64,000 nt of DNA. Origin: Comamonadaceae bacterium PBBC1 (GTDB taxonomy: Bacteria; Pseudomonadota; Gammaproteobacteria; Burkholderiales; Burkholderiaceae_C). The translations under genes and the position numbers were made by a program. Shown here one piece after another: positions 41,092 to 62,291 of this stretch. Under the pieces are notes generated by a model. It worked only from the letters and a program-made list of their open reading frames with translations. It did not search any database and was not told the DNA's origin. Every line of letters begins with the position of its first letter. Positions within the stretch are counted from its first letter, which is position 1. The stretch covers positions 1 to 64,000 of the forward strand of contig NKIP01000008.1 of NCBI GenBank assembly GCA_002256145.1, in the 5' to 3' direction.

Positions 41092-42657
41092 TCAGGGGGT
41101 CTGCTTTTCCAGATCCCGAAGCTTAAAGCGCTGAATCTTGCCGGTAGCCGTTTTGGGCAGTTCGGCCACAAACTCGATGAAGCGCGGATATTTGTAAGGG
41201 GCCAGGCGCTCCTTGACAAAGGCCTTGACCTCCTCTTGGTTCAGGGTTTGCCCGGATTTGAGCACGATGAAGGCCTTGGTTTTGGTCAGGCCATCGGTGT
41301 CTTCCTTGCCAATCACGGCCGCTTCCAAAATGGCGGGGTGTTGCACCAAGGTGGATTCGACTTCAAAAGGTGAGACGTAAATGCCGCTGACCTTGAGCAT
41401 GTCGTCGTTGCGTCCCGCGTAGGTGTAGTAACCGTCGGCATCCCGCGTGTATTTGTCGCCGCTCTTGGTCCACACGCCTTGGAAGGTGTCGCGCGTTTTG
41501 CTGCGGTTGTTCCAGTACATCAGGGCGCTGCTGGGGCCCTGAATGTAAAGATCGCCAATTTCGTCGTGTCCTGTGATCACCTGGCCGTCCTCGGTGCGCA
41601 ATTGGACTTCGTAACCGGGCACAGGCTTGCCCGTGGAGCCATAACGCACATCACCAGGGCGGTTGGACAGAAATACGTGCAGCATTTCTGTCGAACCAAT
41701 GCCGTCAATGATCTCGCAGCCAAAGTGACTGGACCAGCGCTCGGCGATGTCACGCGGCAGGGCTTCACCCGCAGAGGAGCACAGCCGCAGCGCAAGCGCT
41801 TTGCGGGCTGGCAAATCGGGGTGGGCCAACATGCCGCCGTAGCCGGTGGGTGCCCCATAAAACACCGTCGGTTGATGTGCCACCAGGCGTTTGAAGGTGG
41901 CTTGAGGCGTGGGGCGTTCAGCCATCAGCACCACAGAGGCACCCACACTCAAAGGGAACGTCAGGGCGTTGCCCAGACCGTAGGCAAAAAAGAGTTTTGC
42001 AGCCGAAAAAACCGTGTCGCTCTCACGCAAATCCAGCACGCCTTGGCCATACAGCACGGCCGTCCAGTAGAGGTTGCCTTGGCTGTGCACGGTGCCTTTG
42101 GGCTGGCCTGTGGAGCCCGATGAGTACAGCCAGAAAGCCGGTTCATCGGCCAGTGTGGGTGCGGGCAGTGCGGGCGGGTTTTGGGCCACAAAGTCGGCCA
42201 TGTTGAGTTGGCCCGGGGTCAAGGCCGCTGCAGGGCGAGAGACCACGATGTGAGCCACTTCGGTTTTGCCCAGGTCCAAGGCCGCTTGCAAGGTTGGCAG
42301 CAAGGCCCCAGACACCAAAACGGCTTGTGCACGGCTGTTGCCCAACATGAAGGCGTAATCATCGGGCGTCAGCAAGGTGTTGACGGCCACAGGCACCACG
42401 CCCACGTAAAGCGCCCCCAAAAAGGCCACGACCCAGTCGCTGCTGTCTTGCATGAGCAAAAGCACACGCTCTTCGCGCTTGAGGCCCAGGGCCTTCAGGC
42501 CTCCGGCGAAACGCCGGATTTGATCGTGAAGCTCGCCGTAAGTGAGTGAACCCACGTCATCGATCAAGGCGGTTTTGCCCGTGCGCTTGGCGTTGCTGGC
42601 GATCAGGTGTTGGGCAAAATTGAAATCTGCGGGGGGTGGGGTCACGGGGCGTGTCAT
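41092..42657 (-). CDS. bclA: Benzoate--CoA ligase
   Basis: A 521-residue ANL-superfamily acid-CoA ligase that activates benzoate with ATP and CoA, the entry step of the box pathway. The P-loop YSSGSTGQPKG begins at residue 178. The benzoate-CoA-ligase-family middle part (FFAYGLGNALTFPLSVGAS, then IGSTEMLHVFLSN) follows. The C-terminal catalytic Lys is in LPKTATGKIQRFKL. The start at 42657 (MTRPVTPPPADFNF) has GGAG upstream (TGAGGAGACACAC in coding sense). The frame is open far upstream over boxD but without conserved sequence. It lies downstream of boxD on the same strand, with a large palindrome between them. Related aromatic acids may also be substrates. Confidence 0.92.
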   Translation of the reverse strand: MTRPVTPPPADFNFAQHLIASNAKRTGKTALIDDVGSLTYGELHDQIRRFAGGLKALGLKREERVLLLMQDSSDWVVAFLGALYVGVVPVAVNTLLTPDDYAFMLGNSRAQAVLVSGALLPTLQAALDLGKTEVAHIVVSRPAAALTPGQLNMADFVAQNPPALPAPTLADEPAFWLYSSGSTGQPKGTVHSQGNLYWTAVLYGQGVLDLRESDTVFSAAKLFFAYGLGNALTFPLSVGASVVLMAERPTPQATFKRLVAHQPTVFYGAPTGYGGMLAHPDLPARKALALRLCSSAGEALPRDIAERWSSHFGCEIIDGIGSTEMLHVFLSNRPGDVRYGSTGKPVPGYEVQLRTEDGQVITGHDEIGDLYIQGPSSALMYWNNRSKTRDTFQGVWTKSGDKYTRDADGYYTYAGRNDDMLKVSGIYVSPFEVESTLVQHPAILEAAVIGKEDTDGLTKTKAFIVLKSGQTLNQEEVKAFVKERLAPYKYPRFIEFVAELPKTATGKIQRFKLRDLEKQTP

Positions 42658-42788: not shown

Positions 42789-44357
42789 TCAGAGGGCCAG
42801 CTTGCCGCCCTGGGCGGTCAGCTGATCCAAAGCGAGCGAGCTGCCTTGCACCGCACTGCGGCGGTGGTAGAAATTGAGCGCCCGCAGGCCGCCCAGCTCT
42901 TCGCCGCCGCCCGCGCGGCCGGGGCCGCCGTGCAAGCTCATGGGCATCACGTTGCCGTGGCCGCTGTGCAGGCTTGCCACGTCGGGTGAGATGGCGTGCA
43001 CACGGCCGTGGCTGCTGGCCAAAGCCACAGAGGCTTGCGCGGTGAATACAGGGTCTTCGCTGTAGACCGAGCACACCAACGAGCCTTCGCCCCGGCGGAT
43101 CATGGCGTAGGCCTCGTCGATGCTGTCGTAAGGCATCAGGGTGGACACGGGGCCGAACACTTCGACCGCGTGCAGCACATGGGCCGTCATCGGCGATTCG
43201 GTGCCCAGCAGCACCGGCGCCACGCAAGCGCTGTTGGCGTCGGCATCGATCAGTGCGGCACTGTTGCCGTCGAACAAAACGGTGGCTTCGGTTTTCAGCA
43301 GTGTCAGGCCCGCCAGCACGCTGGCTTTTTGTTCCTGACTGACCAATGCACCCATGCGCACGGTCTCGTTGCGCGGGTTGCCCACGGTGGTTTTGGCCAG
43401 ACGCGCCCCCATGGCTTCGGCGGCGGCTTTGTACAAGGCACGCGGCACAAAAATGCGGCGGATCGCGGTGCACTTCTGGCCCGATTTGACGGTCATCTCG
43501 CGGGCCACTTCGGCCACCAGCAGCTTGAAGGCTTCGCTGTCTGCGGTCGCCGCAGGCGAGAGCAGGGCGCTGTTGAGGCTGTCGGCTTCGATGTTGCAGC
43601 GCACCGACAGCTCGGTCACCGCGCGGTGGCTGCGGATGATCTTGCCGGTCTCGGCCGAGCCGGTGAAGCTCACCACATCAAAGGCCTGCAACTGATCCAT
43701 CAGGCCTGCCGACGAGCCACAGATGACCGACAGCGCACCCACGGGCAACACACCTGCGTCGACCACGTCTTTGACCATGCGCTGGGTCAGCCAGGCGGTG
43801 GCGGTCGCGGGCTTGATGATGACGGGCACGCCCGACAGCAGTGCTGGCGCGGCTTTTTCCCACAGGCCCCAGCTGGGGAAGTTGAAGGCGTTGATGAACA
43901 GCGCCACGCCGCGTGTGGGCACCTGGATGTGCTGGGTCTGGAAGGCCGGGTCTTTGGCCATGCGGATGCGCTCGCCGTCGAGCAGCAGCGTGGCGTCGCC
44001 CAGGGCCGCGCCCTGCTTGGCGTAGTAGCCCAGGGTGAAGATCGCGCCGTCAATGTCCACGCCCGAGTCCTTGGCCACGGTGCCACTGTTGGCCGTGGCG
44101 ATTTCGTAGTAGGCGTCGCGGTTGGCTTGCAGGACTTCGACGATCTTGGTGAGCAATGCAGCGCGTTGCCCGTAGCTCAGGGCACGCAGCGCCGCGCCGC
44201 CTTGTTCACGGGCAAAGGCAAAGCCTTCGGCCAGGTCCATGCCGGTGCTGGATACGCGGGTCAGCTCGGTGCCCAGCACCGGATCGAAAAGGGGCGTGCC
44301 TGCACCGGTGCCTGTTTGCCAGCGGCCTGCAAAAAAGTTGGGAAGCAATGGGGACAT
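42789..44357 (-). CDS. boxD: 3,4-dehydroadipyl-CoA semialdehyde dehydrogenase
   Basis: A 522-residue aldehyde dehydrogenase that oxidises the ring-opened product of BoxC to 3,4-dehydroadipyl-CoA with NADP+. The NAD(P)-binding [21 protein letters not shown] region and SFTGSAETG are present. The catalytic Cys296 is in SGQKCTA, and the general-base region is CNIEADSLN. The sequence is of the PaaZ/BoxD type rather than an ordinary ALDH. It is divergent from boxR; the 202-base gap contains candidate BoxR operators. bclA lies 131 bases downstream. Generation of NADPH by this step can feed BoxA/BoxB. Confidence 0.92.
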
Positions 44358-44460: not shown

Positions 44461-44502
44461 ATGCATTATTGTGCTTACCCTCTAGTATGCATTAAAGTGC
44501 AT
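44461..44502. promoter_or_regulatory. Candidate BoxR operators between boxD and boxR
   Basis: ATGCATTAAAGTGCAT (44487-44502) is an imperfect palindrome of the form ATGCA-N6-TGCAT. A degenerate copy, ATGCATTATTGTGCTT, lies at 44461-44476, 26 bases away. The identical 16-mer occurs upstream of boxC (45517-45532). TGCA-containing palindromes are the known targets of the related BzdR/BoxR regulators, so these are the best operator candidates for the divergent boxD and boxR promoters. Confidence 0.7.
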
Positions 44503-44559
44503 GTTTTGGGTTTCTTGAAATCCTAGGGTTTTCCCTTGTTTTGTCATTCCGTGTTGAAC

Positions 44560-45474
44560 ATGACCTCTGAAGCCAGCTTGCCCATCGATCCGACCGAGCC
44601 CGACACCCGACGCCATCCTTTTTTGGAAGCCTTGGGGGAGCGGGTGCGCAACTTGCGCTCGCGGCAAGGCATGACGCGCCGCGCCGTGGCTTTGGCCGCC
44701 GAAGTTTCTGAACGCCACTTGGCCAACCTCGAATACGGCACTGGCAACGTCTCGGTGTTGGTGCTGTTGCAGGTGGCCAATGCCTTGCAATGTTCTTTGG
44801 CCGAATTGCTCGGTGATGTGACCACCCGCTCGCCCGAATGGCTCTTGATTCGTGAGTTGCTGGGCCAGCGCAGCGAAGCCGATTTGCGCCGTGCCAGATT
44901 GCAACTGGTGGATCTATTGGGTGAAGGGGGTAACGCACAAGAGCGTCAGAACCGCATTGCCTTGATCGGTTTGCGCGGGGCAGGTAAAACCGCGCTGGGC
45001 CAGCGCCTGGCCGACGACATGGGATTTCCCTTCATTGAGCTGAGCCGAGAAATTGAGCAATTTGCCGGATGCCAGATCAGCGAGATCCACAACCTGTATG
45101 GGGCCAATGCCTACCGACGCTACGAGCGACGGGCCCTCGAAGAAGCCATTCAGATTTACCCCGAAGTGGTGATTGCCACGCCCGGGGGGCTGGTGTCGGA
45201 TTCGGCCAACTTCAATCTGTTGCTCTCGCACTGCACCACCGTGTGGCTGCAGGCCGATGCCACCGACCACATGGGCCGTGTGGCCGCCCAAGGGGACATG
45301 CGCCCCATGGCCGCCAGCCGCGAGGCCATGGAAGACCTCAAACGCATTTTGGAAGGACGAGCCGCTTTTTATTCCAAAGCCGACATGGCCATCAACACCA
45401 GTGGCCGAACAGAAGACCAGGCTTTTGAGGCCTTGCGTACTTCGGTTCGCCAACATCTGGGACGTCCGGCTTGA
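44560..45474 (+). CDS. boxR: BoxR: XRE-type regulator fused to a shikimate-kinase-like domain
   Basis: A 304-residue repressor of the aerobic benzoyl-CoA pathway. An N-terminal XRE helix-turn-helix (about residues 24-86: LGERVRNLRSRQGMTRRAVAL, then SERHLANLEYGTGN) is joined by a linker to a shikimate-kinase-like domain. The P-loop of that domain is GLRGAGKT (137-144). In characterised BoxR/BzdR proteins the C-terminal domain binds benzoyl-CoA, which releases the repressor from DNA. The ATG at 44560 is chosen; a TTG at 44536 in frame is possible. It is flanked on both sides by ATGCA-N6-TGCAT sites, suggesting autoregulation and control of both arms of the cluster. Confidence 0.93.
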   Translation: MTSEASLPIDPTEPDTRRHPFLEALGERVRNLRSRQGMTRRAVALAAEVSERHLANLEYGTGNVSVLVLLQVANALQCSLAELLGDVTTRSPEWLLIRELLGQRSEADLRRARLQLVDLLGEGGNAQERQNRIALIGLRGAGKTALGQRLADDMGFPFIELSREIEQFAGCQISEIHNLYGANAYRRYERRALEEAIQIYPEVVIATPGGLVSDSANFNLLLSHCTTVWLQADATDHMGRVAAQGDMRPMAASREAMEDLKRILEGRAAFYSKADMAINTSGRTEDQAFEALRTSVRQHLGRPA

Positions 45475-45489
45475 TGTGGAGATGAAAAT

Positions 45490-45588
45490 TTGGTTCATAG
45501 GGTAAATACCTATAAAATGCATTAAAGTGCATATTACGCGAACGGCAAAGATGCACTAAACTTCAGCTCAACATGCAGTGAACTGCAT
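45490..45588 (+). promoter_or_regulatory. boxC promoter with candidate BoxR operators
   Basis: TTGGTT (45490-45495) and TAAAAT (45513-45518), spaced 17 bases, form a plausible sigma-70 promoter. ATGCATTAAAGTGCAT (45517-45532) overlaps the -10 and start region. A degenerate site, ATGCACTAAACTTCAG, lies at 45551-45566, and a near-perfect palindrome, ATGCAGT-GA-ACTGCAT, at 45573-45588. Binding here would block transcription, fitting repression of boxCBA by BoxR until benzoyl-CoA appears. Confidence 0.72.
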
Positions 45589-45633
45589 TTTTTGACAGAA
45601 ATCAATTCCACCCCTTCACCGATGGAGACACCC

Positions 45634-47292
45634 ATGACCGCAGCGCTTCAAGTTAATTACCAAACCCACCCTTCCCATTACAAGCACATCAACCTGGCTT
45701 TTGATGGCGAGATCGCGACCTTGTCGATCAACATCAACGAAGACGCCGGCATTCGCCCTGGCTACAAGCTCAAGCTCAACAGCTATGACCTGGGTGTGGA
45801 CATCGAACTGCACGACGCGTTGCAACGCATCCGCTTCGAGCACCCCGAAGTGCGCTCGGTGGTGGTGACCAGTTTGAAGGACCGCGTGTTCTGCTCCGGT
45901 GCCAACATCTTCATGCTGGGTGTATCCACCCATGGTTGGAAGGTGAACTTTTGCAAGTTCACCAACGAAACCCGCAACGGCATCGAAGACTCCAGCAAAC
46001 ACGACGGTCTGAAATTCGTCGCCGCCCTGAACGGCGCTTGCGCGGGCGGCGGTTACGAGCTGGCCTTGGCCTGTGACGACATCGTGCTGGTGGATGACCG
46101 TTCTTCTTCGGTGTCTTTGCCTGAAGTGCCTTTGCTCGGCGTGTTGCCCGGCACCGGTGGCCTGACCCGCGTGACCGACAAGCGCCATGTGCGCCACGAC
46201 CTGGCCGACATCTTCTGCACCAGCGTCGAAGGCGTGCGTGGTCAAAAAGCCGTGGACTGGCGTCTGGTCGATGCCATCGCCAAGCCCGCAGTGTTCAAAG
46301 ATGTGGTCAGGGCACGCGCCGCAAAACTGGCCGCTGGCAGCATCCGCCCCGCAGGTGTCAAAGGCGTGGAACTGACACCCTTGAACCGCAGCATCGCGGC
46401 CGACGCGTTGACTTACACCAACGTCTCGGTGGAGATCGACCGCACCAAGCGCATCGCCACCTTCACCGTCAAGGCACCTGCCACAGCCCAGCCCACCGAC
46501 ATTGCTGGCATCGAAGCTGCAGGCATGAACTGGTGGCCGCTGCAGATGGTGCGTGAACTGGACGACGCCATCCTGCACATGCGCACCAACGAACTCGACA
46601 TCGGCACCTGGGTCCTCAAGACCTCTGGCGACCCCGCAGCCGTGCTGGCCTCGGACGCCACGATGCTGGCGAACAAAGACCACTGGTTTGTGCGTGAAAC
46701 CATTGGCCACCTGCGCCGCACCCTGGCCCGCATGGACGTGACTTCCCGCAGTCTGTTCGCCCTGATTGAAGAGGGGACATGCTTTGTCGGCACACTCGCC
46801 GAGTTGGCTTTCTGCGCCGACCGTGCTTACATGCTGGCCCTGCCGGATGACGAAGCCAAGGCCCCCAAGATTCAACTCAACGAAATGAACTTCGGTTTCT
46901 TCCCCATGGTCAACGACCAGACCCGCTTGCAGCGCCGCTTTTATGAAGAAGTGCCAGCCATGGAAGCTGCTCGCGGCGCGATTGGCAAGGCCTTGGATGC
47001 TGACGCCGCTTTGGCCCTGGGCCTGGTGACTGCTGCCCCTGACGACATCGATTGGGCCGACGAAATTCGCCTGGCCCTGGAAGAGCGCTCTTCCATGTCG
47101 CCCGATGCCCTGACCGGTCTGGAAGCCAACCTGCGTTTCGCCAGCCAAGAGAACATGCTGACCCGCATCTTTGGCCGCCTGACCGCCTGGCAGAACTGGA
47201 TCTTCCAGCGCCCCAACGCCGTCGGCGAAAAAGGTGCCCTGAAGGTCTACGGCAAGGGCGAAAAAGTCCAGTTCGATCTGAATCGCGTTTAA
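45634..47292 (+). CDS. boxC: 2,3-epoxybenzoyl-CoA dihydrolase (benzoyl-CoA-dihydrodiol lyase)
   Basis: A 552-residue crotonase-superfamily enzyme. It hydrolyses 2,3-epoxybenzoyl-CoA, opening the ring to 3,4-dehydroadipyl-CoA semialdehyde and releasing carbon 2 as formate. The crotonase core is recognised at about residue 133 (NGACAGGGYELALACDDI), followed by LPEVPLLGVLPGTGGLTR. The second half continues as the BoxC-specific part. The ATG at 45634 is chosen because GGAGA (45624-45628) lies five bases before it; ATG 45622 overlaps that site. It is first of boxCBA, 25 bases before boxB. The formate it makes gives a reason for the formate dehydrogenase encoded downstream. Confidence 0.95.
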   Translation: MTAALQVNYQTHPSHYKHINLAFDGEIATLSININEDAGIRPGYKLKLNSYDLGVDIELHDALQRIRFEHPEVRSVVVTSLKDRVFCSGANIFMLGVSTHGWKVNFCKFTNETRNGIEDSSKHDGLKFVAALNGACAGGGYELALACDDIVLVDDRSSSVSLPEVPLLGVLPGTGGLTRVTDKRHVRHDLADIFCTSVEGVRGQKAVDWRLVDAIAKPAVFKDVVRARAAKLAAGSIRPAGVKGVELTPLNRSIAADALTYTNVSVEIDRTKRIATFTVKAPATAQPTDIAGIEAAGMNWWPLQMVRELDDAILHMRTNELDIGTWVLKTSGDPAAVLASDATMLANKDHWFVRETIGHLRRTLARMDVTSRSLFALIEEGTCFVGTLAELAFCADRAYMLALPDDEAKAPKIQLNEMNFGFFPMVNDQTRLQRRFYEEVPAMEAARGAIGKALDADAALALGLVTAAPDDIDWADEIRLALEERSSMSPDALTGLEANLRFASQENMLTRIFGRLTAWQNWIFQRPNAVGEKGALKVYGKGEKVQFDLNRV

Positions 47293-47316
47293 AAATTTTT
47301 TCACCAGGAGAACATC

Positions 47317-48744
<1,428 letters not shown>

Positions 48745-48783
48745 TTGAGTCTCTTGCTGCCGTCCTCGCTGTTTGCTGGGGCG

Positions 48784-48861
48784 GCAGTTGACAGAGGAAG
48801 GGGCGGGTTCCTCATGCTGGGGCACCAGAAATCGTGACCCGCCCCTTCCCCTGCCAACTGC
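48784..48861. repeat. Conserved-loop palindrome 1
   Basis: The 25-base arms at 48784-48808 and 48837-48861 are complementary with two mismatches. The 28-base centre contains TCATGCTGGGGCACCAGAAA, in which CTGG and CCAG can pair over GGCA. The inner arm sequence (AAGGGGCGGGT) is shared with palindrome 2. It begins 39 bases after the boxB stop codon. Confidence 0.85.
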
Positions 48862-48932
48862 ATGGGTTTTATTTCGCGTCGGGGTTGTTTCTCAACTGTG
48901 GAATATTGAATGTTCTGCCCAGAGTTGAGGCG

Positions 48933-49010
48933 GTCATTGAAAGGGCAAGGGGCGGGTTCCTCATGCCGGGGTACCGAAAATCGTCACCCGCCCCTTGCCC
49001 TTTCAATGAC
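48933..49010. repeat. Conserved-loop palindrome 2 (perfect 25-base arms)
   Basis: The arms at 48933-48957 and 48986-49010 are perfectly complementary over 25 bases. The 28-base centre contains TCATGCCGGGGTACCGAAAA. Relative to palindrome 1, a T-A pair of the small inner hairpin has become C-G (CGG/CCG), a compensatory change. Both palindromes 1 and 2 are followed by ATGGGT. Confidence 0.88.
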
Positions 49011-49068
49011 ATGGGTGTGCTGAGCGATCAGGGTCCCATTAGACTCAGAGCGTTGAAGCAGGCACAGA

Positions 49069-49146
49069 GCAACGGTATGGCTTGGGGCCGGGTGCCGATT
49101 TCTGGTACCCCAGCATGAGGCGCCCGGCCCCAAGCCATACCGTTGC
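49069..49146. repeat. Conserved-loop palindrome 3 (loop inverted, different stem)
   Basis: The arms at 49069-49092 and 49123-49146 are perfectly complementary over 24 bases (GCAACGGTATGGCTTGG...), and three further pairs extend inward. The stem sequence is unrelated to palindromes 1 and 2. Its centre, ATTTCTGGTACCCCAGCATGA, is the reverse complement of their loop. The element ends 51 bases before boxA. Confidence 0.85.
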
Positions 49147-49197
49147 GGACCACGCAGGCAACAGACAGAAAACGCCAAAATACAAGAGAGCCAAGAC

Positions 49198-50508
49198 ATG
49201 AGCACAGAAGCGACGCTGATCAAACAACACCTGATCGACCCGGAAATCTGCATCCGCTGCAACACCTGCGAAGCGATCTGCCCCGTGGGGGCCATCACCC
49301 ACGATTCGCTCAACTACGTGGTCAAGGCCGACATCTGCAACCTCTGCATGGACTGCGTCTCGCCATGCCCTACAGGCTCCATCGACAACTGGCGCATGAT
49401 GCCCAAGGCAAAGGCCTACAGCATCGAAGAACAACTCAAATGGGACGAGTTGCCCGCCGAACTCAGCCCTGAAGAAATTGCAGCGGCTGGTGGCTCTGCC
49501 GACGCCGCACAAGAAGAAGCCCAAGCCGCTGTGCAGGCCGCTGCTTCTTCGTCATCGGCTGCCAGCACCGCCGCCGCTTCAGGCTTCAACTCCGCCCAGT
49601 TCGGCGCGACCATCCCCCCTTGGTCGGCTGCCCACGCCTACACCAACCTGTACGGCCCCAAAGCCGCCGAGAAAACCATCACCGCCACCGTCACTGGCAA
49701 CCTGCGCGTGACCGAAGTGGGCCAACAAGAAGGTCAACAAGACTACGACACGCACCACATCGTGCTCGACTTTGGCAGTCTGCCCTTCCCGGTGCTTGAA
49801 GGCCAGTCGATCGGCATCATCCCGCCGGGTGTGGACGCCAACGGCAAGCCGCACCATGCCCGCCAATACTCGATCGCCAGCCCACGCAATGGCGAGCGTC
49901 CTGGCCACAACAACCTGTCGCTGACCATCAAACGCGTGCTCGAAGACCACGACGGAAAACCCGTGCGCGGCGTGGCTTCCAACTTCATGTGCGATTTGAA
50001 TGTGGGTGAAAAAGTGCAGGTGATTGGGCCGTTTGGCGCGAGCTTCCTCATGCCCAACCACCCCAAGAGCCACATCGTCATGATTTGCACGGGTACGGGC
50101 TCTGCCCCCATGCGGGCCATGACCGAATGGCGTCGCCGCCTGCGGGCCAGCGGCAAGTTCGAGGGCGGCAAACTCATGCTGTTCTTCGGTGCCCGCACGC
50201 CGGCCGAACTGCCTTACTTTGGCCCGCTCAACAATCTGCCCAAAGACTTCATTGACATCGAGTTTGCTTTTTCGCGTGAAGTGGGCAAGACCAAACGCTA
50301 CGTTCAGGACGCCATGCGCGACCGTGCTGCCGACATCGCTGCACAACTCAAGGACCCCAACACCTGCTTTTATGTGTGCGGGCTCAAAAGCATGGAAGAG
50401 GGCGTGGTCATGGCCCTGCGCGACATCGCGCAAAATGCCGGTCTCGATTGGGACAGCATCGGTGCGGCCCTCAAAAAAGAAGGCCGTCTGCACCTTGAAA
50501 CCTATTGA
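49198..50508 (+). CDS. boxA: Benzoyl-CoA 2,3-epoxidase subunit BoxA (reductase)
   Basis: A 436-residue flavoprotein that passes electrons from NADPH to BoxB. The N-terminus carries two [4Fe-4S] motifs, Cys18-21-24-28 ([11 protein letters not shown]) and Cys47-50-53-57 ([11 protein letters not shown]). An Ala/Ser/Glu-rich linker (about 95-135) follows, then a ferredoxin-NADP+ reductase-like FAD and NADPH domain ([35 protein letters not shown]). Length and layout match BoxA of Azoarcus. The start has GAGAG eight bases upstream. Three palindromes precede it and REP-like repeats follow, so it is bracketed by structured DNA on both sides. Confidence 0.95.
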
Positions 50509-50540
50509 CAAAGTGCGGTGTTGGATCACCGTGCCTGTCT

Positions 50541-50620
50541 TTGTAGGAGCCAGCCATGCTGGCGATCAATGGGCCTGAGGTCTGCAGCCCGCTTATCGCT
50601 TGCAGGGCAAGCTCCTGCAA
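50541..50620. repeat. Composite GGAGC-type palindrome
   Basis: Outer arms TTGTAGGAGC (50541-50550) and GCTCCTGCAA (50611-50620) enclose a nested stem, GCCAGC-CAT-GCTGGC (50549-50563). A further GCGAT/ATCGC plus GGGC/GCCC pairing lies inside. The outer arms match those of the boxD-bclA palindrome at 42713-42782. It lies 32 bases after boxA. Confidence 0.65.
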
Positions 50621-50645
50621 AATCCCTGTTTTCTGTGGGTGCCAG

Positions 50646-50754
50646 TTGCAGGTCGCTGGCTTCAGCCCCGACGTGGGGTTCTTTCGGTGCTGAAGCTCCG
50701 ATCTGCGAGGGTCAGGATCAGGTATCTTGTAGGTCGGTGGCTTTAGCCCCGACA
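50646..50754. repeat. Three GTCGG-type REP-like units, middle one inverted
   Basis: Units at 50646-50674 and 50727-50754 share TTGyAGGTCG-N9/10-CCCCGAC. Between them, around 50681-50706, lies a degenerate copy in reverse orientation (CGGTGCTGAAGCTCCGAT). The same family is seen after apbC (34510-34571). Confidence 0.65.
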
Positions 50755-50809
50755 TACAGCGCTTGTTCATGGCAGACATGAATTTCTCAAACGGATGTGA
50801 CCATTTCGC

Positions 50810-52546
50810 ATGCAGACCGATTCCATTTCTGAAACCCGTATCGGATTGAACGCGCTGCGTGAGCAACTTCGCCAGCCTCGATCCCAGCTCAAAGGCCGTC
50901 AGGCCACTCATGAAGCCCGTGCCGAAGTGCGTGCCTTGATTGGCGAGCCACCCACAGACGGCCACCGCCGTGACTTGCTGATCGAGCACTTGCATGCGCT
51001 GAACGACCATTTCCATGGCCTGTTTGAGCGTCACATCGTGGCGCTGGCGGCCGAAATGCGGCTGTCGGTGGTCGAGGTGTTCGAGGTCGCGTCTTTCTAC
51101 CACCACTTCAATATCCTGAAGGAGAACGAAACCGCGCCGCGCATCATCGTGCGGGTGTGCGACAGCCTGAGCTGCAGCCTGTCGGGCAGCGACAGTTTGC
51201 TGCGCGAGTTGCAAAACGATTTGCAAAACAAGGGATCGGGTGTGACGGTTGTGCCCGTGCCTTGCCTGGGCCGCTGCGAGCAGGCCCCGGCCGCGCAGGT
51301 GGGTCAGCAGGCCGTGGCGCAGGCGTCGGCTGAAGCCGTGGCGCAACGTGTGGCGCAAAACCAGACGACCCCCAACGCCTTGCCTGATGCGATCCGTATG
51401 GCCGCTTACAGGAAGGCGGGCGGTTACCAATTGGCGTCGCAGGTGGCCGCTGGTTTGAAAGACCATGAGTCGGTCATCCAGTGCCTTGAATCCTCAGGCC
51501 TTCGTGGCCTGGGCGGCGCGGGGTTTCCCGCCGGACGCAAATGGCGCATCGTGCGCAGCCAGCCCGGCCCACGCCTGATGGCGGTGAACATCGACGAGGG
51601 CGAGCCCGGCACCTTCAAGGACCGCACCTGCCTGGAAGCCGACCCGCACCGTTTTCTGGAAGGTGTGCTGATCGCCGCCAGCGTGGTGGGCTGCGAGGCG
51701 GTCTACATTTATTTGCGCGATGAGTACCACGAAGCGCGTGTCTTGTTGACCCAAGAACTGGCCGCTTTGCATGCCAACCCACCATGCGCCTTGCCACGCA
51801 TCGAACTGCGCCGGGGCGCGGGTGCTTACATCTGCGGCGAAGAGTCGGCCATGATCGAAAGCATCGAAGGCAAACGGGGTGAGCCGCGCATGCGCCCGCC
51901 TTACATCGCTGAAGTCGGCCTGTTTGGTCGCCCGACGCTGGAGCACAACTTTGAGACCCTGTTTTGGGTGCGCGAACTGATTGAGCAGGGCGCAGACAGT
52001 TTTGCATCGCATGGACGTCACGGCCGTAAGGGTCTGCGCCGTTTCAGTGTGAGTGGGCGCGTCAAGCACCCGGGCGTCAAGCTCGCGCCTGCGGGCATCA
52101 CGCTGCGCGAACTTGTTGATGAATACTGCGGCGGCATGGCCGAGGGGCATACGCTTTATGCCTATTTGCCCGGTGGGGCCAGTGGCGGCATCTTGCCCGA
52201 GCGCCTGGCCGATGTGCCGCTGGACTTTGACACCTTGCAGCCGTACGGCTGCTTCATCGGTTCGGCCGCCGTGATGGTGCTGAGCCAAAACGACAGCGCC
52301 CGCGAAGCGGCCCTGAATGTGATGCGCTTTTTTGCGCACGAAAGCTGCGGCCAGTGCACGCCCTGCCGCGTGGGTACCGACAAGGCTGCGCAGCTCATGG
52401 CAGCCCAAGTGTGGGATGCCGATACCTTGCAAGATTTGGCGCAGGTCATGGGTGACGCGTCCATTTGCGGCCTGGGCCAAGCGGCACCGAATCCGATCCG
52501 GTGCGTGCTCAATGACTTTCCGCACGAAGTGGGGGCCACGGCATGA
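50810..52546 (+). CDS. NAD-dependent formate dehydrogenase beta subunit (NuoE-NuoF fusion)
   Basis: A 578-residue protein that passes electrons from the formate-oxidising subunit to NAD+. Residues about 1-165 are NuoE-like with a [2Fe-2S] site: Cys117, Cys122 (CDSLSC), Cys152 and Cys156 (CLGRC). From about 200 it is NuoF-like: the NADH/FMN site GLRGLGGAGFPAGRKW near 230, FMN loop GAGAYICGEESAMIES, and the C-terminal [4Fe-4S] motif CGQCTPC (513-519) with a later Cys in SICGLG. Fused NuoE/NuoF subunits are known from FDH1 of Methylobacterium, unlike the separate FdsG and FdsB of Cupriavidus. The stop overlaps the next gene (ATGA). Confidence 0.88.
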   Translation: MQTDSISETRIGLNALREQLRQPRSQLKGRQATHEARAEVRALIGEPPTDGHRRDLLIEHLHALNDHFHGLFERHIVALAAEMRLSVVEVFEVASFYHHFNILKENETAPRIIVRVCDSLSCSLSGSDSLLRELQNDLQNKGSGVTVVPVPCLGRCEQAPAAQVGQQAVAQASAEAVAQRVAQNQTTPNALPDAIRMAAYRKAGGYQLASQVAAGLKDHESVIQCLESSGLRGLGGAGFPAGRKWRIVRSQPGPRLMAVNIDEGEPGTFKDRTCLEADPHRFLEGVLIAASVVGCEAVYIYLRDEYHEARVLLTQELAALHANPPCALPRIELRRGAGAYICGEESAMIESIEGKRGEPRMRPPYIAEVGLFGRPTLEHNFETLFWVRELIEQGADSFASHGRHGRKGLRRFSVSGRVKHPGVKLAPAGITLRELVDEYCGGMAEGHTLYAYLPGGASGGILPERLADVPLDFDTLQPYGCFIGSAAVMVLSQNDSAREAALNVMRFFAHESCGQCTPCRVGTDKAAQLMAAQVWDADTLQDLAQVMGDASICGLGQAAPNPIRCVLNDFPHEVGATA

Positions 52547-55335
52547 GCACCGTCCAATTCACCCTCAACGGTCAAACGGTCGAATCGCCAGCCGGAAAAA
52601 GCATTTTCAACATCGCCAAAGACCTGGGCATCACCATCCCGCACCTGTGCCACAAAGAGGGCTTGAAACCCGATGGCAACTGCCGCGCCTGTGTGGTCGA
52701 GGTGGCCGGTGAGCGCACGCTGGCCCCCAGCTGCTGCCGCAGCGCCACGCCCGGCATGCAGGTGCAAACGAACAGCGAACGCGCGGTCAAAAGCCAGAAG
52801 ATGGTGCTGGAGATGCTGCTGGCCGACCTGCCCGAGCAGGGCCACAAGTGGCTCGATGACCGCGCCGAAGCCCCACACGGCGAACTGAGCCAATGGGCCG
52901 AGCACCACGGGGTGCAGGTGCGCCCAGCGCTGGCAGAGTTGCGCCGCGAAGCCGTGCCCGCCGATCTGTCGCACCCGGCCATGGCGGTGAACCTGGATGC
53001 GTGCATCCAGTGCAACCGCTGCGAACGCGCTTGTCGTGACCTGCAGGTCAACGATGTGATTGGTCTGGCTTTTCGGGGCGCACACACGCAGGTGGTGTTT
53101 GACCTGGCCGACCCCATGGGTGGCAGCTCTTGTGTGGGCTGCGGCGAATGTGTGCAGGCCTGCCCCACAGGCGCACTCATGCCCAAGAGCCACATGGGGC
53201 CGCAAACCGTGGACCGCGAAGTCGATTCGGTGTGTCCGTTTTGCGGCGTGGGTTGTCTGGTCACCTACCAGGTGCGCGATGAAAAAATCATCAGCGTCAA
53301 AGGCCGAGAAGGCCCGGCCAACGAAGGGCGCCTGTGCGTCAAGGGCCGTTTTGGCATGGATTACATCCACAGCCCGGACCGCATCACCAAGCCACTGATT
53401 CGCAAAACGGGTGTGGCCAAAGACCTGGGCCTGATCGATGGCCACACTGATTTGCGCGAAGTCTTCCGCGAAGCCACTTGGGAAGAGGCATTGGATTTGG
53501 CCACCGGGCCACTGAACGCTTTGCGCCAGCAACACGGCCCCAAGTCACTCGCCGGTTTTGGCTCGGCCAAGGGCAGCAACGAAGAGGCCTACCTCTTCCA
53601 GAAGCTGGTGCGCACCGGCTTTGGCAGCAACAACGTGGACCACTGCACCCGCTTGTGCCACGCGTCCAGTGTGGCCGCCCTGTTGGAGGGCGTGGGTTCG
53701 GGGGCAGTCAGCAACCCAGTGCGAGATGTCAAGCATTCAGACCTCATCATCGTCATTGGCTCCAACCCCACCAGCAACCACCCCGTGGCCGCTACCTGGA
53801 TGAAAAACGCAGCCCAGCGCGGCACACGCATCGTGCTGGCCGACCCGCGCATCACTGACATCGGTCGCCACAGTTGGCGCAATCTGCAGTTCAAGGCCGA
53901 CACCGATGTGGCCATGCTCAACGCCATGCTGCACGTCATCGTCAACGAGAACCTGTGCGATGAAAAATTCCTGAGTGAACGTGCCGACAACGTGGCAGAA
54001 CTCAAGGCCCATGTGCAGGACTTCACGCCCGAGGCCATGAGCGCGGTTTGCGGCATTCCGGCCGACACCCTCCGCGAAGTGGCCCGTGCCTATGCCAGCG
54101 CCAAAGCCGCCATGATTTTGTGGGGTATGGGCGTGAGCCAGCATGTGCACGGCACCGACAACGTGCGCTGCCTGATTGCGCTGGCCAGCATCACCGGCCA
54201 GATCGGCCGCCCCGGCACCGGCCTGCACCCGCTGCGTGGCCAAAACAACGTGCAAGGCGCGAGCGACGCGGGCCTGATCCCGATGATGTACCCCAACTAC
54301 CAGCGCGTGAGCGACAAGTCGGCGCACGACTGGTTTGAGAAATTTTGGGACACGAAACTCGACGACCAGCCCGGCTACACCGTGGTCGAAATCATGCACA
54401 AGGCCCTCGCGCCTGACAGCGACCCGCACAAGGTCAGGGGCATGTACATCCTGGGTGAGAACCCGGCCATGAGCGACCCGGACCTGAACCACGCCCGCCA
54501 CGCGCTGGCCAGCTTGCAGCACTTGGTGGTGCAAGACATCTTCTTGACCGAAACCGCTTGGCTGGCCGATGTGGTGCTGCCCGCCAGCGCCTGGCCCGAG
54601 AAGACCGGCACCGTCAGCAACACCGACCGTACGGTGCAAATGGGCCGCCAGGCCGTGTTGCCACCCGGCGATGCGAAACCCGATTTGTGGATCATCCAGC
54701 AGATCGCTCAGCGTTTGGGTTTGAATTGGTCTTATGCAGGCGAGCACGAGGGCGTGGCCGAGGTGTACGAAGAAATGCGCCAGGCCATGGCCCCGGCCAT
54801 TGGTGGCATCGATTGGGCGCGTCTGAATGCGGGCTCGGTCACTTACCCTTGCGTGAGCGCCGAGGACCCGGGTCAGCCCATCGTTTTCCACGACCACTTT
54901 CCCACCCCCGATGGCCGTGTGAAGTTGGTGCCTGCTGAAGTGATATTGGCAGCCGAGCGGCCCGATGCCGAGTATCCCTTTGTGCTCATCACTGGGCGAC
55001 AGCTGGAGCATTGGCACACCGGCAGCATGACGCGCCGTGCCACGGTCCTTGATGCCTTGGAGCCTGCGGCCACGGCCTCCATGCATGGTGCCGACATGGA
55101 TCGATTGGGTTTGGAGCCTGGTCAACGCATCCAGGTGCGTTCGCGCCGGGGTGAGGTGAGCCTGCAAGTCAGGCAAGACAACGGCACGCCTTTGGGCGCT
55201 TTGTTCATGCCTTTTGCCTACCAAGAGGCAGCAGCCAATTTATTGACCCATGCGGCGCTGGACCCCTTTGGCAAAATTCCGGAATTCAAATACTGCGCCG
55301 TCCAAGTCCAAGGCCTCGCCTCCCAGAAAGCATAA
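52543..55335 (+). CDS. Formate dehydrogenase catalytic (alpha) subunit
   Basis: A 930-residue molybdopterin oxidoreductase of the soluble NAD-linked formate dehydrogenase type. Order: NuoG-like [2Fe-2S] domain (CHKEG...CRAC, about residues 36-52), a His-containing cluster region, two ferredoxin clusters (CIQCNRC from 154, CVGCGEC from 197), then the bis-MGD core opening with CPFCGVGC at 231. The active site reads TRLCHAS: Cys372 followed by His373, so it is the cysteine form, not selenocysteine. The C-terminal domain has TGRQLEHWHTGSMTRR. Formate becomes CO2. It is translationally coupled to the beta subunit. fdhD and fdsC/D are not seen alongside. Confidence 0.92.
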   Translation: MSTVQFTLNGQTVESPAGKSIFNIAKDLGITIPHLCHKEGLKPDGNCRACVVEVAGERTLAPSCCRSATPGMQVQTNSERAVKSQKMVLEMLLADLPEQGHKWLDDRAEAPHGELSQWAEHHGVQVRPALAELRREAVPADLSHPAMAVNLDACIQCNRCERACRDLQVNDVIGLAFRGAHTQVVFDLADPMGGSSCVGCGECVQACPTGALMPKSHMGPQTVDREVDSVCPFCGVGCLVTYQVRDEKIISVKGREGPANEGRLCVKGRFGMDYIHSPDRITKPLIRKTGVAKDLGLIDGHTDLREVFREATWEEALDLATGPLNALRQQHGPKSLAGFGSAKGSNEEAYLFQKLVRTGFGSNNVDHCTRLCHASSVAALLEGVGSGAVSNPVRDVKHSDLIIVIGSNPTSNHPVAATWMKNAAQRGTRIVLADPRITDIGRHSWRNLQFKADTDVAMLNAMLHVIVNENLCDEKFLSERADNVAELKAHVQDFTPEAMSAVCGIPADTLREVARAYASAKAAMILWGMGVSQHVHGTDNVRCLIALASITGQIGRPGTGLHPLRGQNNVQGASDAGLIPMMYPNYQRVSDKSAHDWFEKFWDTKLDDQPGYTVVEIMHKALAPDSDPHKVRGMYILGENPAMSDPDLNHARHALASLQHLVVQDIFLTETAWLADVVLPASAWPEKTGTVSNTDRTVQMGRQAVLPPGDAKPDLWIIQQIAQRLGLNWSYAGEHEGVAEVYEEMRQAMAPAIGGIDWARLNAGSVTYPCVSAEDPGQPIVFHDHFPTPDGRVKLVPAEVILAAERPDAEYPFVLITGRQLEHWHTGSMTRRATVLDALEPAATASMHGADMDRLGLEPGQRIQVRSRRGEVSLQVRQDNGTPLGALFMPFAYQEAAANLLTHAALDPFGKIPEFKYCAVQVQGLASQKA

Positions 55336-55416
55336 TCCCGGGTGTCATGAACCGGCAGGGCAAGGACTTGGGGCCTGCTGTCGGGGTGTACCACTCACAA
55401 GGCCAGGGAGGCCGCT

Positions 55417-56907
55417 TTGAATCTGAACATGCAAACCGTCTTCTGGATGGATGCGTTTTTGTACCTGATGCTGTATGCGGCCATTTGGTATGGATTGGCC
55501 CGCTATCGCAGCCCCAGGGTGGTGCTTTGGAGTGTTTCTGGCATTGCCAGTGCCGTGGGCTTGTGCGTGCTGGGCAGTCGAGGCTGGATCTCCTACAGCC
55601 TGATTGTGGTGCTGGGTCAGTTTTTGATGGCTGCAGGCAATTGGGGCCGCCAAATCGCCTTGCGCTCCTTGGACGGGCCGCCTTCAGAGCGTTGGATGTG
55701 GTGGTCGGGTTTGGCCAATGTGGTCTATTTGGGGTTGAGTTATGGTTTGCATTTCTCGGGCGCACCCGAAAGCACCATCGTGTTGCTGTTTTACGCTTAT
55801 TACAGCGTTAACTGTGCGGATTACTGCTGGTCAGGCCGGCGCATCGGGCAGACACATGACGCCATCGGGGCCAATGCGGTTTACTGGGCGGGTTGGGTGC
55901 TGGTGTCGACTCTGGGTCTTAAAACTTTGGCTTTGCTGACGGGTTGGGGTGCAACCGATTTGTATGAGGTCACCTTGGACAACTTTGTCGTGTTTGCTGG
56001 ACAGTTCATGGCCTTGATCATGCTGAATGTGGGCTTCATGCAGATCTACATTGACAAACACCACCGCGCCAAAATTTTGATCGAAAAAACACTCTCTCGC
56101 GAGAAAGAACACTCAGCCTTGGCGCAAGAGCATGCCGAGGACCTTCGTGTTTTGTTGCTTGAACGCGATGAAATCATCCGTCAGCTGACCTTGTCCAGCA
56201 AAAGCGCAGGCATGGGGGCCTTGGTGGCCAGCTTTGCCCATGAGCTCAATCAGCCTCTGACAGCCATTTTGCTGCATGCCGAGTTGTTGCAAAGCAAGCT
56301 GTTCAAAGTGCAGCAAGAACAAGGCTTGAATGATTTGCCCATGCTGCGCTCGGTGGCCGATTGCATCGTCAGCGACACGCAGCGTTCAGCCGACATCATT
56401 CGCAAATTGCGCAATTTGTTTCGCATGAGCAAGGGCGAAAGCACCACCATTCGCATGGATCAGTTGGTGATGGATGTGATTGATTTGGTGCAGCCCAAAA
56501 TGCAAGCGGCCGATATTTTGCTCAGCACATCGTTTGAAGCCGATTTCCGCTTTCATGGTGATGCCACCCAACTGCAACAAGTGGTGCTGAATTTGCTGAA
56601 CAATGCCATGGACGCCATGATCGAAAAACGGACCCGTTACCCCCATCTGAAAATACGGGGACTGGTGCAGGAGGGGCATTTGGTGTTACTTGTGGAAGAT
56701 AACGGCAAAGGCATTCCTGTGGACTTGCAGGACGAAGTCTTCAGTTTGTTCAAAACCTCCAAGTCGCAGGGTATGGGGGTTGGTTTGTGGCTCAGTCGGG
56801 CGATTGTCGAGTCGCACGGCGGTCAACTCGACTTCAAATCCGATCCTGGCTGGGGCACGGTTTTTACAATGCGATTACCCTGCCCCGATGTTCATCTTGT
56901 TTCCTGA
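55417..56907 (+). CDS. Membrane sensor histidine kinase
   Basis: A 496-residue sensor kinase. The N-terminal 215 residues form about six to seven membrane helices with little periplasmic sequence, suggesting sensing within or at the membrane. A coiled coil follows, then an H-box SFAHELNQPLTA (His275). The ATPase domain has LLNNAMDAM, EDNGKGIP and GMGVGLWLSRAIVESHGG. This is the HPK4-type H-box (HELNQPL) of the NtrB/DctB-like group. A GGGAGG at 55405-55410 supports the TTG at 55417; an ATG at 55429 also exists. It has no response-regulator neighbour, yet sits between the formate dehydrogenase and its accessory genes. Confidence 0.88.
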   Translation: MNLNMQTVFWMDAFLYLMLYAAIWYGLARYRSPRVVLWSVSGIASAVGLCVLGSRGWISYSLIVVLGQFLMAAGNWGRQIALRSLDGPPSERWMWWSGLANVVYLGLSYGLHFSGAPESTIVLLFYAYYSVNCADYCWSGRRIGQTHDAIGANAVYWAGWVLVSTLGLKTLALLTGWGATDLYEVTLDNFVVFAGQFMALIMLNVGFMQIYIDKHHRAKILIEKTLSREKEHSALAQEHAEDLRVLLLERDEIIRQLTLSSKSAGMGALVASFAHELNQPLTAILLHAELLQSKLFKVQQEQGLNDLPMLRSVADCIVSDTQRSADIIRKLRNLFRMSKGESTTIRMDQLVMDVIDLVQPKMQAADILLSTSFEADFRFHGDATQLQQVVLNLLNNAMDAMIEKRTRYPHLKIRGLVQEGHLVLLVEDNGKGIPVDLQDEVFSLFKTSKSQGMGVGLWLSRAIVESHGGQLDFKSDPGWGTVFTMRLPCPDVHLVS

Positions 56908-56918: not shown

Positions 56919-57503
56919 ATGTCCGTTCATGTCTTGTCTGAAGTGGCCATTTTGATGCGCCGCGAGCCTGTTCAAGGGCCCATGGCCCGTTGGCAGTCCC
57001 ATCGTTGGGTCTTGGCCGACGTGGTGCCGCAAGAAAGTGGCTTTGGCATTGAGCCACGTTGCCTGCGCCTGACCGAGGAAGAGGCCTTGTGGCTGTACCC
57101 ACAGTGGTCGTTGGAGTTGTTTTCAGATGATGCCGAAGGTTACTGGTTGAACCACACATCGCCTGCGCCTTGCTTTTTTGTGATGTGGCGCTTACAAGCC
57201 TCAGAGGGACAAGAGCCTCGGGCTGTGCCCCAGTCTGTGAGCCTGAGTTACCACGACGCAGGCCGTTGGCTTGATGCACAAGAAACTGTAGAAACCGTGC
57301 CCGCTTCGCCCGAAGTTGTGGCTCACCTGCAGGCCTTTACCGAGGCGTTTTATGTGCCTGAGGTCAAGCGTCGTCAGCGCCCGCAAAGTTTTCAAGGCCT
57401 CATCGACCGTTTTGGGCAACCTGCTTCGGTCAGTACCCAGGACAAGCGCAAAGGCCCAGGTGGTCCCGGACGTGCAGGCTTTGATCCAGGGGCCAAGGCA
57501 TGA
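56919..57503 (+). CDS. DUF3305 domain-containing protein
   Basis: A 194-residue protein. It begins with VAILMRREPVQGPMARWQSHRW, the typical DUF3305 opening (a VxVxMxRRP...W pattern). The conserved C-terminal segment of the family around FYVPEVKRRQRPQSF is also present. DUF3305 and DUF3306 proteins are regularly encoded together near formate dehydrogenase genes, but their role is unknown. The ATG at 56919 is 11 bases after the kinase stop; the upstream open frame overlaps the kinase and is unconserved. The stop overlaps the next start (ATGA). Confidence 0.8.
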   Translation: MSVHVLSEVAILMRREPVQGPMARWQSHRWVLADVVPQESGFGIEPRCLRLTEEEALWLYPQWSLELFSDDAEGYWLNHTSPAPCFFVMWRLQASEGQEPRAVPQSVSLSYHDAGRWLDAQETVETVPASPEVVAHLQAFTEAFYVPEVKRRQRPQSFQGLIDRFGQPASVSTQDKRKGPGGPGRAGFDPGAKA

Positions 57504-58243
57504 CTGAGCCATTTTTCAGCCGTTGGTCCAAGCGCAAGCAAGCACTGGCCCAAGGCTTGCCTGTGACAGAACCCGAGCCATCCAAGCCCGCGCCAACCCA
57601 TCCCGTCCTGCCAGACACTGCCCCTGTGCTCAAGGCCCGTGAAGGCCAGGCGGATCGCGTGCACACCGACGCACACTCGCCTGAGACTGAGCAGGGGGCC
57701 AGCCCAGAGCTGCCCAGCCTGGATGATGCAAGAGCCTTGACGCCCAAGTCAGACTTTCGTCCCTTCATGCAACAAGGTGTGGCCAGCGATGTGCGCAACG
57801 CAGCGGTCAAAAAACTCTTCACCGACCCGCACTTCAACGTGATGGACGGGCTGGACATTTACATCGGTGACTACAACACGCCCGACCCCATGCCTGCGGG
57901 CATGTTGCAAAAAATGGTGGGTGCGCAACTGCTGGGTTTGCTGGACAAACCCAATGAAGCGGCCACGCCCACTGCGGGCAGAGTCGATACCTTGTGGCCT
58001 GGCGGGAGCCCTGCTGCAGGCCTTGGTGAAAACCCTGATCAAAGTCCCGCTGCGCCGGAAGGCTCGCCAGTTGTGGCACAGTCGCCGCCTTCCCTGCCCG
58101 ATTCGGCAGGACCGGCCAGCCCCGTGCTGCCGCCCCTTGTCAACGCGCCCCCCGAACATGACCACCCTGATTTGCAACTGCAACCAAACCATGCCCCTGC
58201 AAGCCCAAGCCCTGGGCCAAGCACTGGGCCAAGCACTGGGTGA
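57500..58243 (+). CDS. DUF3306 domain-containing protein
   Basis: A 247-residue protein beginning FFSRWSKRKQ, the DUF3306 signature. A Pro-rich acidic stretch follows, then the conserved DFRPFMQQGVASDVRNAAVKKLFTDPHFNVMDGLDIYIGDY core (about 95-135). The C-terminal third is low-complexity, rich in Pro, Ser and Ala, ending in PGPSTGPSTG. The last 86 bases overlap the next gene in another frame. No signal peptide or membrane segment is seen. It is predicted to assist formate dehydrogenase maturation with its neighbours, from context only. Confidence 0.78.
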   Translation: MTEPFFSRWSKRKQALAQGLPVTEPEPSKPAPTHPVLPDTAPVLKAREGQADRVHTDAHSPETEQGASPELPSLDDARALTPKSDFRPFMQQGVASDVRNAAVKKLFTDPHFNVMDGLDIYIGDYNTPDPMPAGMLQKMVGAQLLGLLDKPNEAATPTAGRVDTLWPGGSPAAGLGENPDQSPAAPEGSPVVAQSPPSLPDSAGPASPVLPPLVNAPPEHDHPDLQLQPNHAPASPSPGPSTGPSTG

Positions 58244-61013: not shown

Positions 61014-61100
61014 TTAGAAGTCTCATGCAACCACCTTGGATAATGGTGACTGAGCGGTAACTTTTCACGCTTAAAAGTTTCACAACCATTGGAGACCTCC

Positions 61101-62271: not shown

Positions 62272-62291
62272 TTACTTATGTGATCCCTGAT

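What the first reader, a model, noticed from the sequence alone, without database searches (positions are those of the whole stretch)
45634..55335. Formate dehydrogenase directly downstream of the formate-releasing box pathway
BoxC releases one formate per benzoyl-CoA. A NAD-linked formate dehydrogenase (fused NuoE/NuoF subunit plus catalytic subunit) follows boxA on the same strand after 301 bases. This would detoxify formate and return NADH, helping pay for the NADPH used by BoxA/BoxB. Together with the maturation genes and transporter it suggests a single benzoate-plus-formate unit; I do not know of a published description of such a unit.
Basis: partly seen in the sequence, partly recalled or inferred. 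Interest (0 to 1): 0.8.

Follow-up and report, generated by a model that had tools for sequence, protein, structure and literature searches.

The report
Benzoate operon carrying formate dehydrogenases
In freshwater Limnohabitans bacteria the genes that break down benzoate and release formate run directly, often with almost no gap, into genes for enzymes that oxidise formate; the link recurs in other genera, but the basic idea had already been published for related bacteria.

Summary
boxC, boxB, boxA, a fused NuoE/NuoF formate dehydrogenase (FDH) beta subunit and its catalytic subunit lie in that order on one strand, 301 nt between boxA and fdhB. By BoxB identity the genome is Limnohabitans. 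In relatives the link is tighter: fdhB starts 5-9 nt after, or overlaps, the boxA stop in 12 of 18 distinct window-clade genomes examined, which suggests co-transcription. In the window BoxR-type sites occur only at boxD/boxR and boxR/boxC. Correction: the DUF3305, DUF3306, polyferredoxin and TorD genes lead into a second, Tat-type FDH3-like enzyme and an fdhD-like gene beyond the window, and follow boxA without NAD-FDH elsewhere. Of 67 Limnohabitans genomes readable downstream, 63 have all or the start of an FDH module after boxA. In the family draw FDH lies within 25 kb at 16 of 150 listed box loci (1.1 expected), FDH3 at 17 (1.2 expected); most box loci have neither listed nearby. Not unpublished: Suvorova & Gelfand 2019 predicted this for Azoarcus (passages).

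The parts
41092..42657 (-). benzoate-CoA-ligase-like gene (AMP-binding); the open frame runs to 43473, likely start ATG at 42657
   Evidence: Pfam PF00501 and PF13193 on the open frame; start from the sequence
42789..44357 (-). aldehyde dehydrogenase, boxD-like
   Evidence: PF00171; 94-95% identical copies in Limnohabitans loci L006, L008, L009, L010
44488..44501 (.). BoxR-type site TGCATTAAAGTGCA between boxD and boxR
   Evidence: pattern scans
44536..45474 (+). boxR, XRE/shikimate-kinase-like regulator
   Evidence: NF006015 434.6 bits, cut-off 204
45518..45587 (.). two BoxR-type sites in front of boxC (45518-45531, 45574-45587)
45634..47292 (+). boxC; open frame from 45592, ATG at 45622 or 45634
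   Evidence: TIGR03222 952 bits
47317..48744 (+). boxB, benzoyl-CoA epoxidase
   Evidence: TIGR03225 897 bits
49198..50508 (+). boxA, reductase of BoxB
   Evidence: TIGR03224 733 bits
50509..50809 (+). 301-nt boxA-fdhB gap with repeat copies; 5-9 nt or overlapping in 12 of 18 relatives of its clade
50810..52546 (+). fdhB, fused NuoE/NuoF FDH beta subunit
   Evidence: PF01257, PF01512, PF10589; PDB 7e5z_B 679 bits
52543..55335 (+). fdhA, FDH catalytic subunit with NuoG-like N-terminus and Cys372-His373
   Evidence: TIGR01591 701 bits; PDB 7vw6_A 1204 bits; RxCH in 72 of 72 rows
55417..56907 (+). histidine kinase, in the run after fdhA in many but not all relatives
   Evidence: HisKA and HATPase_c; 37-84% identical after fdhA in L096-L099, L101-L104, L109-L112, L115
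56919..57503 (+). DUF3305 protein (open frame from 56787; first ATG 56919)
   Evidence: PF11749; start from the sequence
57500..58243 (+). DUF3306 protein
   Evidence: PF11748
58158..60320 (+). poly-4Fe-4S protein (open frame from 57867; ATG at 58158)
   Evidence: Fer4 family matches on the open frame; start from the sequence
60330..60956 (+). TorD/NarJ-type chaperone
   Evidence: PF02613 above cut-off; TorD-type NCBIfam matches below cut-off
61089..62219 (+). TRAP transporter dctP (optional in relatives)
   Evidence: PF03480; nearest solved structures SmoM and other TRAP binding proteins
62280..62918 (+). TRAP transporter dctQ
   Evidence: PF04290
62969..64000 (+). TRAP transporter dctM; runs on beyond the window, followed on the contig by FDH3-type fdoA (65245-68292), fdoB, fdoC and an fdhD-like gene
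   Evidence: PF06808

Best explanation
This is an extended box (aerobic CoA-dependent benzoate) operon in Limnohabitans. BoxAB and BoxC convert benzoyl-CoA to the semialdehyde and formate (established pathway knowledge). The next two genes encode a cytoplasmic NAD-linked FDH of the M. extorquens FDH1 type, which would oxidise that formate to CO2 and NADH. The run continues through maturation genes into a Tat-type, probably quinone-linked FDH3-type enzyme and an fdhD-like gene, which could oxidise formate that reaches the periplasm. Transcription is most likely driven from the BoxR-controlled promoter before boxC and reads through; in the window fdhBA has no BoxR-type site of its own. Shown here: gene identities, order, tight junctions in relatives, recurrence, site placement. 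Inferred: co-transcription, induction, enzyme activity, location of the second enzyme, and the fate of the NADH.
For: Family assignments. fdhB starts 5-9 nt after, or overlaps, the boxA stop in 12 of 18 distinct window-clade genomes examined. 63 of 67 readable Limnohabitans box loci have an FDH module after boxA: 47 NAD-FDH, 12 FDH3 with its alpha gene on the contig, 4 only the start of the FDH3 island (DUF3305 onward) before the contig ends. Family draw: 16 FDH and 17 FDH3 within 25 kb of 150 listed box loci, 32 of 33 downstream on the same strand (4 and 3 of these are Limnohabitans). At least 8 changes of the link on the FDH tree are forced by supported branches. Window sites: the only three TGCAN6TGCA matches flank boxR. 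Only one other PF01512 gene in the genome, nuoF-like by its place near a NuoG-type match. In Pandoraea, BoxA and BoxB were seen only on kraft lignin, where FDH also rose (PMC5987411, passages): weak, another genus and substrate.
Against: 66 of 80 nearest box loci show neither module in the DNA held, at most 10 kb each side and often cut by contig ends. In the family draw 134 of 150 listed box loci have no listed FDH and 133 no listed FDH3 within 25 kb. In this genome the gap is 301 nt with a terminator-like hairpin just after boxA, though such hairpins are about as frequent in shuffles (19 found, 15.9 expected). NAD-FDH and FDH3 lie near each other at 42 places in the family draw, 34 of them not near a listed box locus, so the FDH island also exists without box. 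TGCAN6TGCA is not more frequent than chance over the window (3 found, 4.3 expected), and one match lies 88 nt before fdhB, inside boxA, in L108. No expression data.
Confidence: 0.8

Rival explanations
1. The FDH island is a general formate or C1 energy module that happens to sit after box; it is expressed on its own and serves formate from any source.
For: NAD-FDH and FDH3 lie near each other at 42 places in 299 family genomes, 34 not near a listed box locus. Some Limnohabitans keep NAD-FDH far from box. A LysR-type gene precedes fdhB in one box-linked relative, L141, and transporter genes vary in the run.
Against: Overlapping or 5-9 nt boxA-fdhB junctions in 12 of 18 genomes; 32 of 33 near placements downstream on the same strand; different FDH lineages after boxA.
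Confidence: 0.15
2. Chance neighbourhood, or one rearrangement inherited widely, without functional meaning.
For: Within Limnohabitans one old event could be inherited by many genomes; on the tree, gains and losses cannot be told apart.
Against: About 14 times the random expectation in the family draw, in ten genera downstream on the same strand; two unrelated FDH types; at least 8 forced changes of the link; a published case on the divergent arm in Azoarcus.
Confidence: 0.05

Closest known systems
BoxR regulon with FdhBA in Azoarcus EbN1 and BH72 (Suvorova & Gelfand 2019, PMC6449761; passages seen)
   Same: box genes with a two-subunit FDH next to them, predicted BoxR control in EbN1, same proposed role (oxidise BoxC formate)
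   Different: There FdhBA is close to the lactonase gene of the box cluster (in BH72 too far for co-transcription, the authors say); here it follows boxA on the boxCBA strand. The passages read mention no FDH3 island and no overlapping junction.
M. extorquens tungsten FDH1 (PDB 7vw6, 7e5z; organism recalled)
   Same: Two subunits, fused NuoE/NuoF beta, long alpha, near full-length similarity
   Different: Metal here (W or Mo) not determinable; here linked to box genes.
FdwAB of Cupriavidus (PMC2842291, passages seen)
   Same: Described there as a putative dimeric tungsten-containing NADH-yielding FDH, the same make-up
   Different: Not compared by sequence here; no box linkage is mentioned in the passages read.
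FDH3-type membrane-bound FDH with DUF3305/DUF3306/TorD genes
   Same: NF038355 FDH3 beta and TIGR01583 gamma above cut-off; DUF3305 and DUF3306 reported beside dmsD-fdhGHI operons (PMC4464133, passages seen)
   Different: Here the run continues from a box operon and a NAD-linked FDH; its alpha scores below the TIGR01591 cut-off (481 against 666).
FdsGBACD soluble NAD-FDH
   Same: NAD-linked FDH with NuoE/F/G-like parts
   Different: No separate FdsG; the NuoE-like part is fused. Similarity to chains 6tg9_A and 9wxb_B is far lower (559 and 574 bits against 1204).

Membership tests
box (aerobic CoA-dependent benzoate) pathway | BoxA, BoxB and BoxC present above curated cut-offs | tested here: met
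   TIGR03222, TIGR03225, TIGR03224
box (aerobic CoA-dependent benzoate) pathway | BoxR regulator and TGCA-repeat sites at the box promoters | tested here: met
   NF006015; sites at boxD/boxR and boxR/boxC in the window; binding not tested
box (aerobic CoA-dependent benzoate) pathway | ligase and aldehyde dehydrogenase on the divergent arm | tested here: met
   AMP-binding and Aldedh genes on the minus strand
FDH1-type NAD-linked formate dehydrogenase | fused NuoE/NuoF beta plus alpha with NuoG-like N-terminus | tested here: met
FDH1-type NAD-linked formate dehydrogenase | catalytic Cys-His (motif recalled) | tested here: met
   Cys372-His373; RxCH in 72 of 72 rows
FDH1-type NAD-linked formate dehydrogenase | metal at the active site; NAD+ reduction by formate | not testable with these tools
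   needs purified enzyme
FdsGBACD-type FDH | separate FdsG subunit | tested here: not met
   NuoE-like domain fused into fdhB
FDH3-type membrane-bound FDH (next to the window) | FDH3 beta and gamma cytochrome b above cut-off | tested here: met
   NF038355 339.9 over 240, TIGR01583 175.2 over 115.85
FDH3-type membrane-bound FDH (next to the window) | Tat-exported alpha subunit | tested here: inconclusive
   RRSFLRR near the alpha N-terminus seen in the sequence; no signal-peptide program run
BoxR-regulon FDH as in Azoarcus EbN1 | FDH close enough to box genes for co-transcription | tested here: met
   5-9 nt or overlap in 12 of 18 relatives; 301 nt in the window
BoxR-regulon FDH as in Azoarcus EbN1 | induction with box genes | not testable with these tools
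   no expression data

The most novel reading that the evidence does not exclude
Formate disposal has been attached to the box operon repeatedly with different enzymes. In Limnohabitans one operon could route BoxC formate two ways: inside the cell to NADH, and outside to the quinone pool. Lineages with only the FDH3 module after boxA would rely on formate leaving the cell and being oxidised on the periplasmic side, a formate shuttle built into benzoate breakdown.
Probability: 0.3. Interest if true: 0.6.

Novelty: new variant of a known kind. Interest (0 to 1): 0.42.

Why it matters
Growth by the box pathway costs NADPH and oxygen and yields one formate per benzoate (recalled). A built-in FDH would explain where that formate goes and return reducing power. 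The different arrangements (NAD-FDH, FDH3, or both) within one genus of freshwater bacteria make the value of each route directly testable, and would tie aromatic breakdown to formate turnover.

Tried and rejected
Rejected: chance neighbourhood. Rejected: the maturation genes as accessories of the NAD-FDH alone; they lead to the FDH3-type enzyme and follow boxA without fdhBA in L116, L118, L120, L122, L124, L126 and L128. Rejected: a BoxR-type site of its own before fdhB in the window. Thought unlikely: the C27 gene as a second NAD-FDH; it scores 525.6 against the FDH alpha cut-off of 666, scores close behind on assimilatory nitrate reductase models but below their cut-offs too, reads RLCM where the FDHs read RLCH (meaning recalled), and the only other PF01512 gene lies on another contig.

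Led nowhere: plasmid search (23 records, none covering 80% of the query; the ten listed match only the FDH part); Rfam on 44000-64000, five matches all below gathering scores; literature on Limnohabitans, benzoate and formate (3 papers in the listing, not opened). Searches bearing on whether the unit is in print; passages read. PMC8402940 (passages) also proposes that box-derived formate may be used, with FDH genes described elsewhere in that genome. Gescher 2006 was not seen; it is cited in PMC6449761.

Weak points. Family listings are cut: coordinates for 135 of 160 box genomes (150 loci), and about 150 matches each for FDH (210 genomes had one) and FDH3 (144 genomes). From the FDH3 listing I left four fragment rows out (two of G275, one each of G278 and G330); none lies on a listed box contig. 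The expectation assumes random placement in 4.5 Mb, and 'near' means up to 25 kb; 11 of 16 FDH are within 6 kb. The tree used the quick method with SH-aLRT only; its 29 'far' rows were my choice, its 43 'linked' rows include three duplicates and some FDH up to 18 kb from box, and three rows have long branches. The 18 genomes are those fetched, not all of the clade; start codons are inferred. The pattern was made from the window's own sites, so its 4 against 0.27 is circular. 'Readable' in 63 of 67 is my sorting after the fact: 15 of 82 box genomes were set aside because the contig ends within about 2 kb of boxB or cuts boxB (for G063 judged from the cut match only). The four readable genomes without a module are G035 (two histidine kinases), G052 (nothing known), G067 (start of dctP, then the contig ends) and G025 (DUF3305 and fdhD pieces). 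Whether FDH presence goes with box presence overall was not tested.

Full report
The sequence. The window lies in a genome of 4.59 Mb in 60 contigs; its BoxB is 95-99% identical to that of records named Limnohabitans, so I call it Limnohabitans. On the plus strand it reads boxR, boxC, boxB, boxA, fdhB, fdhA; a ligase and an aldehyde dehydrogenase lie divergently. The three Box proteins and the FDH alpha pass curated cut-offs. The beta subunit has NuoE, NuoF and 4Fe-4S parts in one chain. Both subunits align nearly end to end with a tungsten FDH of solved structure (7vw6, 7e5z). The alpha has a Cys-His pair at residue 372, and RxCH occurs in 72 of 72 FdhA rows.

What lies beyond. After fdhA come a histidine kinase, DUF3305, DUF3306, a poly-4Fe-4S protein and a TorD-type chaperone, then a TRAP transporter. 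Past the window end follow an FDH alpha with a twin-arginine stretch, an FDH3 beta and a gamma cytochrome b (both above cut-off), and an FdhD-like gene (129 bits against a cut-off of 141). The alpha itself is below the TIGR01591 cut-off (481 against 666). So the maturation genes most likely serve this second enzyme. DUF3305 and DUF3306 are reported next to dmsD-fdhGHI operons (PMC4464133, passages read).

One operon? In 12 of the 18 distinct genomes of the window's FDH clade that I examined, fdhB starts 5-9 nt after the boxA stop or overlaps it; the other six have 79, 157, 157, 189, 231 and 301 nt (three duplicate loci removed, recognised by identical FdhA). The window's gap holds a 27-nt repeat twice and I read it as a later widening. 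The window's three TGCAN6TGCA matches flank boxR; their number is not above chance (4.3 expected), their placement is what speaks. Sites at the box promoters also occur in 7 of 8 other loci checked with that region held (L004, L006, L008, L009, L010, L012, L030; not L050), while L108 has one match 88 nt before fdhB, inside boxA. A terminator-like hairpin follows boxA in the window, but such hairpins are about as common in shuffles.

How often? Genus: 82 of 90 genomes have a BoxB match, partial ones included. 46 have the NAD-FDH alpha 3.2-5.7 kb downstream of boxB on the same strand; 12 more have the FDH3 alpha 5.5-7.2 kb downstream and no NAD-FDH alpha there. Reading the rest adds one NAD-FDH case (G047) and four that begin the FDH3 island before the contig ends (G060, G026, G053, G039), leaves four readable loci without, and 15 whose contigs end too soon: 63 of 67. 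Family: 160 of 299 genomes have BoxB. Among 150 listed loci FDH lies within 25 kb at 16 and FDH3 at 17, against 1.1 and 1.2 expected; 32 of 33 are downstream on the same strand, the exception an FDH 15 kb upstream on the other strand. Four and three of these are Limnohabitans. The downstream FDH cases span ten genera, the FDH3 cases nine. Order: 42 of 200 genomes have BoxB above the cut-off; reading coordinates by eye, besides the window one FDH lies 3.5 kb downstream and two lie 12-15 kb away on the divergent arm, all three in one other family. Nearest 80 loci: fdhBA follows boxA in 8 (one cut) and DUF3305 onward without fdhBA in 6; 66 show neither in the DNA held.

Origins. On a tree of 72 FdhA (43 box-linked, 29 not), the link changes at least 9 times, 8 forced by well-supported branches (quick method). 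Within Limnohabitans two FDH lineages sit after boxA. In the second a transporter gene lies between boxA and fdhB: in L109 it matches lactate and oxalate/formate MFS models below their cut-offs and an OXA tail domain above its own; L113 has a similar frame. Its neighbours can stay close to the window's (polyferredoxin 78-93% in L109-L112, TRAP dctP 95-96% in L109 and L110), whereas L113 and L114 have an fdhD-like gene after fdhA. This suggests replacement in place. Gains and losses cannot be separated on this sample.

Prior work. Suvorova & Gelfand 2019 (PMC6449761, passages) state that FdhBA may belong to the BoxR regulon in Azoarcus EbN1, lies near box in BH72, and may oxidise BoxC formate.

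Verdict. A real, recurrent unit that looks functional; a new variant of a known kind. Expression, induction and the fate of the NADH remain inferred.

Noticed in passing
48745-49197: The boxB-boxA spacer holds three large hairpins with stems of 25 bp or more that differ between copies and a conserved loop of about 28 nt (one copy inverted). Among the 27 loci spacers run from 13 to 624 nt, 13-27 nt in the three FDH3-only ones; the pattern taken from the core occurs four times in the genome, three here.
   Followed up: partly
50646-50753: A 27-nt repeat twice in the boxA-fdhB gap; its 21-nt core has no other match in the window with up to 3 mismatches.
   Followed up: partly
L003: A contig labelled Akkermansia muciniphila carries a 99% identical BoxB and the Limnohabitans-type box-FDH run; probably misbinned or mislabelled.
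   Followed up: no
L011, L151, L116, L118, L120, L122, L124: BoxB is 95-97% identical to the window while BoxA is 70-75% and BoxC 75-87%; boxB may recombine on its own or be unusually constrained.
   Followed up: no
55417-56907: Histidine kinase in the run with no response regulator among the neighbouring genes examined; two kinase-like matches follow boxA in L180.
   Followed up: no
L100, L101, L102, L115: TRAP transporter genes follow fdhBA (with or without the kinase) and no FDH3 module is seen; these four genomes have no FDH3 alpha match at E 1e-150. In three of four the dctP is only 47-48% identical to the window's.
   Followed up: no
L144 (G225): fdhB matches appear in three pieces next to box, possibly broken or misassembled; described only.
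   Followed up: no
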